NCBI GenBank assembly: GCA_902827205.1
Contig: LR792634.1
Location: 1,054,001-1,118,000, forward strand
Length of the DNA stretch: 64,000 nt
Direction of reading: 5' to 3'
Source: Methanocaldococcus lauensis
GTDB taxonomy: Archaea; AGJL01; Methanococci; Methanococcales; Methanocaldococcaceae
The translations under genes were made by a program, and so were the position numbers. Each line of letters begins with the position of its first letter. Within the stretch, counting starts at the first letter, position 1. The notes under the pieces are model-generated. The model made no database searches and had not been told where the DNA came from. It saw nothing but the letters and a program-made list of their open reading frames with translations. This document shows, one piece after another, positions 33,759 through 38,584 of this stretch.

Positions 33759-34343
33759 TCAGCTGTTGCTCCAATTCCATAAACCAACTCTATTTATCTT
33801 TGCCTCTCTTTCAATATCTATAAATTCTTTTTCTAATTCAAACTTACTTATATAAACTCTCGCATAGCCGTATTTTAAAAGTTCTTCATTAAAGTTAATA
33901 TAATTACTACCATTTTTTATAAAAATATATGCCAAGTATCTTCCATACTTATCCTTTTTTGGAGCCTCATTATCAAAAACTACAATAACAGTTTTATTAT
34001 CTAACATTTTCTTTGCAAAATCTGTTGCTTTATAGCCCCAAATTTTTAAGTATGTTGTATTAGATATAGGAGTTCCATTCAATAAAAAATATTCATATGG
34101 ATTATTCTTTTTATGTGTCTCTGGTGTATCAACTCCCAATAATCTTATTTTATACAATCTTCCATTGGACTCTACATAAACAGTATCTCCATCAACTACT
34201 TTTACAACCTCTCCATAAAAATGTTCATGGCTATTTATAAAAGCCTCATTGCTATTATAACTATTATGATGACTGAAACATCCAGAAACTATAACAAAAA
34301 ATATTAAAAATGGGATTAAAAAAGGGTATAATTTGGATTTCAT
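33759..34343 (-). CDS. Thermonuclease (SNase-family) lipoprotein
   Basis: A 194-residue exported nuclease. The N-terminal hydrophobic signal ends in a lipobox-like IVSGC at residue 22, suggesting a lipid anchor. The mature part matches staphylococcal nuclease: [11 protein letters not shown], then [11 protein letters not shown] (first active Arg), the [15 protein letters not shown] stretch with further catalytic Lys/Arg, and GLWNWS at the end. It lies between the two shikimate genes and overlaps neither, though only 10 bases separate it from aroK. Likely cuts extracellular DNA or RNA at the surface. Confidence 0.88.
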
Positions 34344-35885: not shown

Positions 35886-36332
35886 TTATTTTTTTAGTTT
35901 TTTATTTAAAATTAAATTATAGTCCTCCTCTGGAATTACCCTCATAGCCTTACCCATTAAATGCCCACTCCATTTCTTTTTATTAGTAATGAACTTTAAC
36001 TTTGGAATTAATTCTTTAAAGTTAATAGGTGGCTCAAAAACCTTAATTTCTTTAAGTTTAACTCTATATGGAAATTTCTCATTAGGATTTCTTGGAGTTG
36101 GTTTAAAAATTTTTGTAGAATCTTTATAAACCTCTGAAACTACTTCATAAATGCCTCTAATGTATGGAGGTTTATAATCTTTACCACTCCTCTGAATTTC
36201 ATAAATAATTAACTTATCCCCAACTTTTACCTTATTTATTGTATTTTTATGTCTCTCTGCTACTCCCCATATCTTTTTCTCTTTTATTACCTTCCAGTTA
36301 TCTTCATTCGTTATACATAGCCAGTATGTCAT
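35886..36332 (-). CDS. EVE-domain protein
   Basis: A 148-residue single-domain protein of the EVE (PUA-like) family, seen in [16 protein letters not shown] at the start, the [12 protein letters not shown] segment and GLGGTYEV-like [12 protein letters not shown] domains bind modified bases and are often found beside restriction or defence genes. It begins 17 bases after the PD-(D/E)XK nuclease gene on the same strand and so is the third gene of a modification/nuclease operon. Ends with a lysine-rich tail. Confidence 0.85.
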
Positions 36333-36349
36333 AATTTCCCCCAGGTATT

Positions 36350-37432
36350 TTAAAGTATTTTTTCAATATTATTATTAAAATCCATCACCCAAATTTCTGG
36401 TTCATAAGATATTTTGTTTAAATCTTTAATTTCAGATAATACATCTTTTGGGAAATTCTCTGGATTAGATAATATATTATTAGTTTTATCTAATATTAAA
36501 AGTATTGGTTTAGTATTATAACTCTTAGCATTTCTTAAATGTCCTCCTATATCGTCTCTTGCCCATTTTATATAATACTCTAATTGCTTTGGTGCTCTTT
36601 TTATGTCATCTAAATTGTTATTCTTAACATATTTTAACTCAATTATTCTATATAAAATATCATCACAATCTGCCTTTTCAATAGTTAAAATATCTATTTT
36701 TTGCATTCCTGCACCCGCAAAAACTTCGTTACCTATCCAAGCTATATTTTTTCCAAATATTTCCGGATAATACTTATTATTCTCTATCTTCAATTCCTGC
36801 ATAATATATGCTTGAAAAGCTGTTTCACTATTAATATCTCTTTTATTAAAGTTTAACCTAAAACTCTCTCCATGATTATAATATTTTTTATCTCCACATA
36901 TTATTCTAAAGTTTTGATTATCAAAATCATATCCATCCTTACAGGTTATTATATTTCCATTATTTTCATCTTTAATCATATTTAACAATCTCTCAACTTC
37001 CCAAGGAAATAACATTGTATTTCCTCTTTTTCCTTTCATTTTTCTGTAAATAAGCATCCATAACAGTTCCCTTGAATATATTGGTAATTTATCTAATGCA
37101 ATAAATTCCAAAACTCCTTCCGAGTAAATTTTATATGGCTCAATATCTTTTCTATATATTAATTTTTTTGGTAAATTTGGTTTTTTCGCATCTTCCCCTT
37201 TTAAATGATAAACCTTATTATCCTTAGATTTAAAGATACCAAAAAATCTCCCTTTTTTATTTTCACTCCCCTCAATATAAAAAAATATATAATCTCCCTC
37301 TTTAACTCTAAGCATGTCTGCTAACAATGAAATATTACTATCTCTATCTCCCGCTCCTGTCCCAACAAATTGATATTTCAAATGAATAGGAAGAGTATTC
37401 TCATTAACCACAAATACATGTCCTCTAATCAT
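36350..37432 (-). CDS. Predicted restriction-type nuclease: PUA/EVE-like N-terminus plus PD-(D/E)XK domain
   Basis: A 360-residue protein I do not recognise as a named enzyme. Residues about 1-75 ([23 protein letters not shown]) resemble the EVE/PUA-like core of the protein encoded next to it. Residues about 205-320 hold a PD-(D/E)XK-type motif: [12 protein letters not shown] followed by [10 protein letters not shown], that is D-x(n)-E-L-K, with a preceding conserved-looking glutamate. Start ATG at 37432 overlaps the methyltransferase stop by four bases (ATGA) with GGTGG upstream. Inferred role: the cleavage partner of the methyltransferase, possibly sensing modified DNA. Confidence 0.65.
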
Positions 37433-38484
37433 TTTTCCACCTTTTGAAAAATAAATATGTATTCATGTTTAAATACATAAAATCCTCCAACTAATGCCCT
37501 ATATCTCCAAAGTTCTTTTTGATTCCTTTTCCCTTTCGTCTCTTCAAAGTTTTTAACGACAATACTCTTTAACTTATATCCTCTTTTTAACACTGCATCC
37601 ATGCAATAAAATCCTAAAGGTATCCACTCTCCATTTGAATATTTATCTCCAATAACCAACACTAAAAATCTACCATCATCTAATATATTGTAAGTATTAT
37701 CAACAACTTCTTCAAACATCTTTAAAAAGTCTTTAACAGTTTTAGCATTTGACAAATCTCTTTCATCATCACTAAACTTAATAATATCATGATATGGAGG
37801 ATGCATAATCAATAATTGGCAGGATTTAAAGCCAAATTTTTTTAATATTTCTTCAAAATCAATTTCTCTACTATCTCCAACAACTACTTCTGTAATTACA
37901 TTGTATGGATTCGCCTCCTTATTTATTAATTCCTTAGCTTTTTCTGCCACTTCTTTATTTAATTCTATCCCAATCCCATGCCTTCCTAATCTTCTACACT
38001 CTATTAGCGTTGTTCCACTCCCTAAAAAAGTATCTACAACTAAATCGTATTTCTTTGTATATCTAAGCATCATTTGTCTTGGAATTTGTGGAATAAAATT
38101 TCCATGATACCATGCTTTATGAACTCCTGAATTGTCCCTTCTATCTATAATCCACAAACTATCCGTTATTATTTCCGTATATTCTTCCCATCTGTTTAAG
38201 TTAATCTCATTTATTCCAGTTGTTTTTATTTCTGTTAGCCCTTTTATTATCTTTTTTAAATAATGTTTTACCCTCTCAACTGATTTTGATTTTTCTGCAT
38301 GTGTAATATTTTTTATAAGCCACTCTCTACTAACTTCATAAACTCCATTTTTAAAAAACTCTTCAGAATTCGTTAATTTGTATTTTATCACCTTAATTCT
38401 ATTTTTTAATATGTTTATATTATCTTCTTTAAGTAAATTATCAATTTCTGAAATAAAATTTTCATTTAGTTTAATAATATTCAT
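37429..38484 (-). CDS. DNA amino-methyltransferase (N4-cytosine or N6-adenine)
   Basis: A 351-residue SAM-dependent DNA methylase. An N-terminal region of about 120 residues precedes a motif X-like HGNFIPQIPRQMMLRYT, motif I DTFLGSGTTLIECRRLG, IGIELN for SAM binding, and motif IV MHPPYHD (a variant of the usual DPPY/SPPY). This X-I-IV order is that of the gamma-like class. The C-terminus carries KHEYIFIFQK. Start ATG at 38484 after GGTGAAATTT. It is the first gene of the operon with the PD-(D/E)XK and EVE proteins. Confidence 0.85.
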   Translation of the reverse strand: MNIIKLNENFISEIDNLLKEDNINILKNRIKVIKYKLTNSEEFFKNGVYEVSREWLIKNITHAEKSKSVERVKHYLKKIIKGLTEIKTTGINEINLNRWEEYTEIITDSLWIIDRRDNSGVHKAWYHGNFIPQIPRQMMLRYTKKYDLVVDTFLGSGTTLIECRRLGRHGIGIELNKEVAEKAKELINKEANPYNVITEVVVGDSREIDFEEILKKFGFKSCQLLIMHPPYHDIIKFSDDERDLSNAKTVKDFLKMFEEVVDNTYNILDDGRFLVLVIGDKYSNGEWIPLGFYCMDAVLKRGYKLKSIVVKNFEETKGKRNQKELWRYRALVGGFYVFKHEYIFIFQKVEK

Positions 38485-38584
38485 AAATTTCACCATATAA
38501 ATTTTAAAAAGATTTTATATCATTTTAAATTTGTAAAATTAAGAAAAATTAAGAAGAATAATTATTTTTTTAGTTTTTTATTTA

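What the first reader, a model, noticed from the sequence alone, without database searches (positions are those of the whole stretch)
35886..38484. Methyltransferase - PD-(D/E)XK nuclease - EVE operon as a compact, possibly undescribed modification/defence system
Three minus-strand genes are tightly packed (4-base overlap, then a 17-base gap): a gamma-like DNA amino-methyltransferase with variant motif HPPYH, a nuclease with a PUA/EVE-like N-terminus fused to D...ELK, and a stand-alone EVE protein. Two modified-base-reading-type domains in one operon suggest cleavage that depends on methylation status rather than a plain type II pair. In M. jannaschii I recall neighbouring genes (yjbQ, aroE region) without this triad, so it may be an insertion.
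Basis: partly seen in the sequence, partly recalled or inferred. Interest (0 to 1): 0.75.

Follow-up and report, generated by a model that had tools for sequence, protein, structure and literature searches.

The report
EVE-domain restriction pair in methanogen
A heat-loving methanogen carries a two-gene DNA-cutting and DNA-protecting pair whose cutter has a base-reading EVE domain fused to a NucS-like nuclease; the pair recurs in bacteria and archaea, and gene neighbours suggest, but do not prove, that it acts on the sequence CATG.

Summary
The three genes are real. The nuclease joins an EVE/PUA-fold domain (residues 1-158) to a NucS/EndoMS-like PD-(D/E)XK domain (198-353), by a confident model and family profiles. 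A contig scan found 31 nuclease loci in bacteria and archaea; 27 hold an MTase of the same family (HPPY motif seen in 26). The stand-alone EVE gene adjoins the pair in 1 of 31; other methanogen copies often lie beside other defence genes. So the conserved unit is the pair, not the triad. In this genome the three genes form a cassette between 23-nt direct repeats, and a sister genome has the empty site. MTase relatives lie beside ICEA-family HNH enzymes (IceA1 recognises CATG), and these ICEA proteins are 50-80% identical to ones beside an unrelated, Dam-like MTase. I read a methylation-protected, type II-like system, probably for CATG, whose cutter uses an EVE domain, so far tied to modification-dependent (type IV) enzymes. 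Against: cleavage, methylation and site are untested; CATG avoidance is not specific; close MTases also occur without this nuclease.

The parts
37429..38496 (-). HPPY DNA amino-methyltransferase (long form, 355 aa; alternative start 38484)
   Evidence: in A3 99% identical to L050, 52-61% to the other long-type rows, 39-46% to the short-type rows
38008..38028 (-). MTase motif I, FLGSGTT (residues 157-163)
   Evidence: read from sequence; F157, G159, S160, G161, T162 invariant in 28 rows of A3
37792..37803 (-). MTase motif IV, HPPY (residues 232-235)
   Evidence: H232 P233 P234 Y235 invariant in 28 rows of A3
36350..37432 (-). EVE-NucS nuclease (360 aa), putative restriction endonuclease
36959..37432 (-). 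EVE/PUA-fold domain of the nuclease (residues 1-158)
   Evidence: VIA-align Z 14.5 to PH1033 (130 aligned, 2.1 A), Z 13.9 to MJECL36, Z 10.6 to VcaM4I; hhalign probability 94.7 to a stand-alone EVE alignment
36374..36841 (-). NucS/EndoMS-like PD-(D/E)XK domain (residues 198-353), with invariant E203, D247, E265, K267
   Evidence: Z 10.7 to EndoMS 5gke over 198-353; residues invariant in 28 of 28 rows; D and ELK align with NucS 2vld by profile
35886..36332 (-). Stand-alone EVE protein (PRK00809/UPF0310 family), accessory, not part of the conserved pair
   Evidence: 93.7% identical to the EVE protein of the M. jannaschii plasmid
35886..35908 (.). Right copy of 23-nt direct repeat TTATTTTTTTAGTTTTTTATTTA (holds the EVE stop codon)
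38562..38584 (.). Left copy of the same 23-nt repeat, between MTase and the end of yjbQ
   Evidence: a near-identical single copy at the empty site of G009

Best explanation
The MTase and nuclease form a mobile, methylation-protected restriction-modification pair that works like a type II system. The MTase would methylate a short site in host DNA, most likely CATG (inferred). The nuclease would use its EVE domain to help recognise that site in DNA lacking the mark, perhaps by flipping a base as VcaM4I's EVE domain does, and cut with its NucS-like PD-(D/E)XK domain (inferred); the mark blocks cutting (inferred). Shown by computation: the genes, their families and folds, the invariant catalytic-type residues, the recurring MTase beside the nuclease, and the cassette boundaries. 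Not shown: any activity, the site, or which base is read. The stand-alone EVE protein is read as a travelling accessory that has joined this cassette in Methanocaldococcus.
For: Pairing: 27 of 31 nuclease loci hold an MTase of this family at E<1e-20, HPPY visible in 26 (L077 is split). Of the other 4, L052 and L076 begin at the contig edge, L079 has only a weak MTase-like neighbour (8.4e-6), L080 none. MTase and nuclease distances correlate over 23 loci (Mantel r 0.43, 4 of 5000 permutations as high). E203, D247, E265, K267 are invariant in 28 of 28. Fold. Target lead: an ICEA (PF05315) gene stands between MTase and EVE nuclease in L055, L071, L072 and near the pair in L073/L136 and, weakly, L069/L139. 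Among ICEA loci of Campylobacterota (20 of 200 genomes) an MTase of this family lies beside or near ICEA in 8 (L136, L182, L185, L186, L187, L188, L191, L192), with the EVE nuclease in 4 of them. ICEA rows beside HPPY MTases are 50-80% identical to five rows beside a Dam-like MTase. IceA1 is called CATG-recognising (title in a reference list); H. pylori hp1208, which I recall to be the MTase beside iceA, methylates CATG as m6A (passage of PMC3936762). Around the window ICEA was found in 1 of 394 genomes, G181, near an HPPY MTase with a long N-terminus; a 110-aa fragment after that ICEA begins like the Dam-like MTases and is then 73.5% identical to the window MTase over 102 residues.
Against: No experiment. 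EVE and YTH domains described in the passages seen read modified bases, and m6A-reading YTH domains are among the nearest folds, so a modified base may be what is read. The dependence is one-way: of seven archaeal genomes outside the genus with a close MTase (PDLC03351 E<1e-100), only G285 has the nuclease in the stretch fetched. The contig scan used two peptide patterns, both from the EVE part, so conservation of that part is partly built in and relatives without it would be missed. The genomes of 20 further carriers have no ICEA (0 of 20, where the controls did not ring either), nor has G000, so CATG for the window's own form rests on the MTase family. G181 is a fragmented draft (about 80 contigs, 85% complete) and its MTase reads like the short type near the C-terminus (by eye). 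ICEA and EVE nuclease together would be redundant if they cut the same site. CATG avoidance is not specific: carriers median 0.54 (n=13) against 0.76 (n=26), but TGCA, TTAA, GGCC, ACGT, AGCT and CTAG fall too, and sister G009, with no nuclease match, is as low (0.43).
Confidence: 0.67

Rival explanations
1. The nuclease is a modification-dependent (type IV-like) enzyme: its EVE domain flips and reads a modified base in phage DNA, and the MTase merely marks the host so that the enzyme ignores it, or serves another purpose.
For: EVE-PD(D/E)XK fusions were listed as putative modification-dependent enzymes (PMC7641849 section 9), and this family may be among them; VcaM4I EVE binds 5mC/5hmC; EVE and YTH structures are the best fold matches; close MTases occur without the nuclease.
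Against: A partner MTase in 27 of 31 loci, where modification-dependent enzymes are said to lack one. MTases of this family also stand beside ICEA enzymes.
Confidence: 0.2
2. All three genes form one system in which the stand-alone EVE protein is a required subunit or sensor.
For: Three genes are packed together and lie in one repeat-bracketed cassette; the arrangement is kept in G061 and G005.
Against: EVE adjacent in 1 of 31 loci of the contig scan. The EVE protein occurs in 13 of 36 genomes of the phylum, the nuclease in 3 of 36.
Confidence: 0.08
3. The MTase is a housekeeping or RNA-type methyltransferase and the nuclease a repair enzyme of NucS type; their pairing is not defence.
For: The best fold matches of the MTase are tRNA methyltransferases of the Trm11/TrmN/Trm14 kind (Z 18.5-19.5), and the nuclease domain resembles the mismatch nuclease EndoMS.
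Against: The best sequence matches are to DNA MTases; patchy distribution (3 of 36 in the phylum); an empty site in a sister genome; association with ICEA.
Confidence: 0.04

Closest known systems
IceA/NlaIII-type CATG restriction-modification systems (NlaIII site recalled)
   Same: MTases of the window's family occur beside ICEA enzymes, and in G181 the start of a Dam-like MTase is joined to an HPPY MTase fragment after ICEA
   Different: IceA is an HNH enzyme; no ICEA was found in G000, which has an EVE-NucS nuclease instead; the six ICEA loci without an HPPY MTase that I looked into have a Dam-like MTase
EVE-PD(D/E)XK and EVE-HNH modification-dependent enzymes (VcaM4I; Bell and others 2020)
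   Same: N-terminal EVE-fold domain fused to a nuclease domain
   Different: Here the nuclease is NucS-like and has a partner MTase in 27 of 31 loci
NucS/EndoMS mismatch endonuclease
   Same: PD-(D/E)XK domain, Z 10.5-10.7 to 2vld and 5gke; NucS_C matches in 14 of 28 members
   Different: Residues 1-158 match EVE folds; paired with a DNA MTase
Stand-alone archaeal EVE proteins PRK00809 (MJECL36, PH1033)
   Same: The third gene is 93.7% identical to the M. jannaschii plasmid copy
   Different: Other copies lie without the pair, several beside HsdR-like, HsdM, OLD-like or helicase genes
PADLOC REase_II PDLC03582
   Same: Distant relative L079 matches both this nuclease family (6e-8) and PDLC03582 (5.7e-9)
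   Different: The window nuclease does not match it at E<=1; which enzyme the model stands for was not shown by any search

Membership tests
Type II restriction-modification system | Separate DNA MTase and nuclease genes kept together | tested here: met
   27 of 31 nuclease loci hold the MTase; the reverse does not hold, 1 of 7 close archaeal MTases outside the genus has the nuclease
Type II restriction-modification system | MTase with SAM-binding and catalytic motifs of a DNA amino-MTase | tested here: met
   FLGSGTT and HPPY; Pfam N6_N4_Mtase, PADLOC MTase_II; H in place of D/N/S in motif IV is unusual (recalled)
Type II restriction-modification system | Nuclease with intact catalytic residues | tested here: met
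   E203, D247, E265, K267 in 28 of 28
Type II restriction-modification system | Cuts at a fixed site and is blocked by the partner's methylation | not testable with these tools
   needs purified enzymes or a methylome
IceA/NlaIII CATG system | ICEA-family HNH endonuclease present | tested here: not met
   no PF05315 match in G000 at E<=1e-10; present beside related MTases elsewhere
IceA/NlaIII CATG system | Modifies and cuts CATG | tested here: inconclusive
   genomic CATG deficit seen but not specific
Modification-dependent EVE-nuclease (type IV) | EVE domain fused to a nuclease domain | tested here: met
Modification-dependent EVE-nuclease (type IV) | No accompanying MTase | tested here: not met
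   MTase in 27 of 31 loci; criterion from a passage of PMC7897488
Modification-dependent EVE-nuclease (type IV) | Cleavage needs a modified base | not testable with these tools
   no assay
NucS/EndoMS | NucS-like PD-(D/E)XK domain | tested here: met
NucS/EndoMS | NucS N-terminal domain | tested here: inconclusive
   residues 1-158 align to EVE/YTH structures and the NucS rows listed align only from residue 198 on; unlisted matches are not excluded
PRK00809/UPF0310 stand-alone EVE | Matches the curated model above its cut-off | tested here: met
   229.1 bits against 139

The most novel reading that the evidence does not exclude
One MTase guards the host against two kinds of cutter for the same site. 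ICEA-type HNH enzymes cut plain CATG, while the EVE-NucS nuclease flips a base to cut CATG sites in phage DNA whose cytosines are modified and so escape ICEA; methylation by the HPPY MTase protects host DNA from both. Lineages such as Methanocaldococcus kept only the EVE-NucS arm and added a second, stand-alone EVE reader.
Probability: 0.13. Interest if true: 0.82.

Novelty: new variant of a known kind. Interest (0 to 1): 0.58.

Why it matters
EVE domains in nucleases are taken as sensors of modified phage DNA, so EVE-nuclease fusions are filed as type IV. A widespread clade with a dedicated MTase would show that EVE domains can also serve ordinary, methylation-blocked restriction, and would warn against calling type IV from domain content alone. 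The neighbourhood gives a concrete, cheap test: does the MTase protect CATG sites from NlaIII? A thermostable EVE-NucS enzyme of known site would also be a useful model for how an EVE pocket tells modified from plain bases.

Tried and rejected
Scans of viral contigs, phages and plasmids found no relative of the nuclease. PDB sequence search of the nuclease alone gave two rows with E 0.26-0.3, taken as chance. The viral fold library gave one row below 0.001, with poor superposition. PDLC03582 rang in 0 of 394 genomes, nor in its controls, so this shows nothing. CATG avoidance was tried in Methanocaldococcus and in 13 long-form carriers against 26 non-carriers and rejected as proof, because other palindromes fall as much. 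In one search twenty of the 26 non-carriers are one 11-20 kb stretch each; eight of them (G207, G210, G227 and five Campylobacterota genomes) were never searched for the nuclease; five of the 26 (G010, G039, G207, G210, G227) have a weaker MTase match. Sister G009 was kept out of both groups, G002 was used only, and three short-form ICEA carriers were printed but not tested.

Rows dropped: the nuclease alignment A2 holds 27 of the 31 loci plus the window, without L075, L076, L077, L078 (split or cut off); L079 and L080 are distant and may not be true members. The MTase alignment A3 leaves out L066 (cut off) and L077 (split) and adds L182 and L185. MTase partners were looked into in 6 of the ICEA loci without an HPPY hit; the rest, mostly broken ICEA genes, were not. 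The fold of MTase residues 1-95 was barely tested. The 165-aa ORF between MTase and ICEA in G181 matched nothing at E<=0.001.

Literature: search listings 36, 37, 41, 62, 65, 88, 92, 105 and 106 (36 and 62 empty) showed no title or abstract start on an EVE-NucS nuclease with an MTase; only open-licence PMC papers are held. Seen: PMC7641849 abstract and sections 9 and 18; passages of PMC7897488, PMC12707154, PMC4389544, PMC13340068 and PMC3936762. PMC4389544 describes a type IIG-like nuclease fragment, not this family. PMC10602043 was not read.

The repeats do not settle gain or loss: they are exact only in the window genome; G061 keeps the right copy and a worn left one; G005 has the triad without repeats; G009 has one copy and no triad.
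Full report
WHAT IS THERE. Three minus-strand ORFs lie as described: MTase 37429-38496, nuclease 36350-37432 and EVE 35886-36332, with a 4-base overlap and a 17-base gap. The genome is one contig of 1,479,331 bases. I take it for a Methanocaldococcus: a same-genus genome, G008, holds the EVE gene at the very place it has in the M. jannaschii plasmid NC_001732, and a relative is titled Methanocaldococcaceae (L050).

THE NUCLEASE. The window protein by itself matches Pfam EVE only below the cut-off (19.3 of 23 bits), nothing in NCBIfam or PADLOC at E<=1 and nothing credible among PDB sequences. In a 28-row family alignment 18 members match EVE (best 3.3e-6) and 14 match NucS_C (best 8.8e-5) at E<=1. 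A profile of the family finds PH1033 (0.0011), NucS 2vld (0.0033) and MJECL36 (0.0061). The AlphaFold2 model (pLDDT 88.9, pTM 0.90) aligns over residues 2-154 to PH1033 (Z 14.5, 130 aligned, 2.1 A), over 2-159 to VcaM4I (Z 10.6, 140 aligned, 3.8 A), and over 198-353 to EndoMS 5gke (Z 10.7, 112 aligned, 2.8 A). Foldseek's best PDB hit is PH1033, 3.8e-5. Profile comparison of the N-terminal part with stand-alone EVE proteins gives 94.7% probability; the C-terminal part gives 0.1%. E203, D247, E265 and K267 are invariant in 28 of 28 rows. The architecture is well supported; activity is inferred.

THE PAIR. In the phylum the nuclease is in 3 of 36 genomes: the window's, one of the same species and one congener. 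An archaeal MTase search led to a fourth pair in G285, whose contig is titled Candidatus Altarchaeum in the later scan. A scan of genome contigs with these nucleases found 31 loci in bacteria and archaea, among them WOR-3, Calescibacterium, Desantisbacteria, Bacteroidales, Ignavibacteria, Spirochaetaceae and Campylobacterales. It used two peptide patterns, both in the EVE part, so it is a lower bound and favours proteins that have that part. MTases of the family (E<1e-20) are in 27 of 31 loci; L052 and L076 are cut by the contig edge, L079 has only a weak neighbour and L080 none. In 26 of the 27 the MTase lies upstream on the same strand; in L070 it is convergent and followed by a Dam-like MTase. 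L051, L053 and L054, among the closest relatives, have the pair without an EVE gene, among genes that look like housekeeping ones by eye; L052 is cut before any MTase. MTase and nuclease distances correlate over 23 loci (Mantel r 0.43, 4 of 5000 permutations as high), which is moderate and allows some exchange. The reverse link is weak: of seven archaeal genomes outside the genus with a close MTase (E<1e-100), only G285 has the nuclease in the stretch fetched.

THE MTASE AND THE CATG LEAD. The MTase family has a variant motif IV, HPPY, invariant in 28 rows. Long-type rows are 52-61% identical to the window MTase (99% in the congener), short-type rows 39-46%. In three short-type loci (L055, L071, L072) an ICEA-family HNH gene stands between MTase and EVE nuclease (E 3e-101 to 5e-125). 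Of nine carrier genomes searched, five have ICEA, one of them weakly; of twenty others, none (controls silent too). In Campylobacterota ICEA is in 20 of 200 genomes. In the loci returned an MTase of the window's family lies beside or near ICEA in L136, L182, L185, L186, L187, L188, L191 and L192, with the EVE nuclease too in L136, L186, L187 and L192 (flanks of about 1.5 kb, so lower bounds). Six other ICEA loci that I looked into (L180, L181, L183, L184, L189, L193) carry a Dam-like MTase with DPPY. ICEA proteins of the two settings (10 and 5 rows) are 50-80% identical; a tree with few supported forks does not separate them cleanly. So they most likely share a site, and two unrelated MTases protect it. 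IceA1 is described as CATG-recognising (title in a reference list; the same paper says most H. pylori iceA1 genes are broken), and hp1208, which I recall to be its neighbour MTase, methylates CATG as m6A. Among 394 genomes around the window ICEA is found in one, G181, a fragmented draft. There an HPPY MTase with a long N-terminus (48% identical to the window MTase, short-type-like near its end by eye) is followed by an unmatched 165-aa ORF, ICEA, and a 110-aa fragment that starts like the Dam-like MTases and continues as an HPPY MTase, 73.5% identical to the window MTase over 102 residues. I read this as a trace of exchange between the two MTases at an ICEA locus. For the window's own MTase the CATG site remains an inference by family.

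GENOMIC AVOIDANCE. CATG is at 0.49 of expectation in G000 and 0.55 in G061, against 0.62-0.85 in seven other Methanocaldococcus, but 0.43 in sister G009, which has no nuclease match; ACGT and AGCT are low in the same three. Over 13 long-form carriers and 26 non-carriers CATG is lower in carriers (0.54 against 0.76, one-sided p 0.001; 0.67 against 0.80, p 0.005, without Methanocaldococcus), yet TGCA, TTAA, GGCC, ACGT, AGCT and CTAG are lower too. The groups differ in phylum and sampling. This neither supports nor refutes CATG.

THE STAND-ALONE EVE GENE. It belongs to PRK00809 and is 93.7% identical to the M. jannaschii plasmid copy, near which no pair of this kind is annotated. It occurs in 13 of 36 genomes of the phylum, at 90-92% identity even in another family of the order, which suggests transfer. 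Neighbours include an HsdR-like gene and a YgjP-like peptidase (L127), an OLD-like ATPase (L128), HsdM (L130) and a helicase with a NOV_C protein (L132); L129 and L131 look ordinary by eye. In G000 the HsdR/YgjP locus keeps only a 40-residue EVE remnant with a stop. Bell and others noted stand-alone EVE genes beside an archaeal helicase-nuclease restriction system (PMC7641849 section 9). It looks like a movable helper of several defence systems.

THE CASSETTE. All 14 genomes of the genus searched have the flavodoxin gene; 3 of them have the triad beside it (and the window). Of the 11 others, 9 show yjbQ and flavodoxin as neighbours without the triad, and in 2 (L118, L125) yjbQ was not seen in the stretch. 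The window's three genes are bracketed by exact 23-nt copies of an AT-rich repeat 2,676 bases apart; in 224 kb of stretches of this genome the only other exact repeats of 22 nt or more at 1-4 kb belong to one regularly spaced array. The right copy contains the EVE stop codon. G009 has one near-identical copy at the junction. Gain into an empty site or precise loss from G009 both fit.

VERDICT. A real, recurring MTase plus EVE-NucS pair; a new variant of restriction-modification by sequence and structure evidence, without biochemical proof. The listings of searches showed no paper on it; subscription papers and REBASE were not available, so REBASE may already list these genes as putative enzymes, and the EVE-PD(D/E)XK class of Bell and others may include them.

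Noticed in passing
G000:C1 about 318660-319950 (L142 18660-19950): Regularly spaced 22-nt direct repeats about 70 bases apart, CRISPR-like, a by-product of the repeat control.
   Followed up: no
L134 3973-4092 (G000:C1:1381972-1382091): C-terminal remnant of a second EVE gene with a stop, beside an HsdR-like gene and a YgjP-like peptidase; an intact EVE stands there in sister G009 (L127).
   Followed up: partly
L042 2706-3038: 110-aa ORF that joins the start of a Dam-like MTase to the end of an HPPY MTase, directly after an ICEA gene.
   Followed up: partly
L042 3755-4252: 165-aa protein between an HPPY MTase and ICEA, no match in Pfam or PADLOC at E<=0.001.
   Followed up: partly
L070 5986-8969: EVE nuclease with a convergent HPPY MTase followed by a Dam-like MTase, so two MTases beside one EVE nuclease.
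   Followed up: partly
window 33759-34343: Staphylococcal-nuclease-like protein with a lipoprotein-like start (by eye) near the cassette; also in G061 and G009.
   Followed up: no
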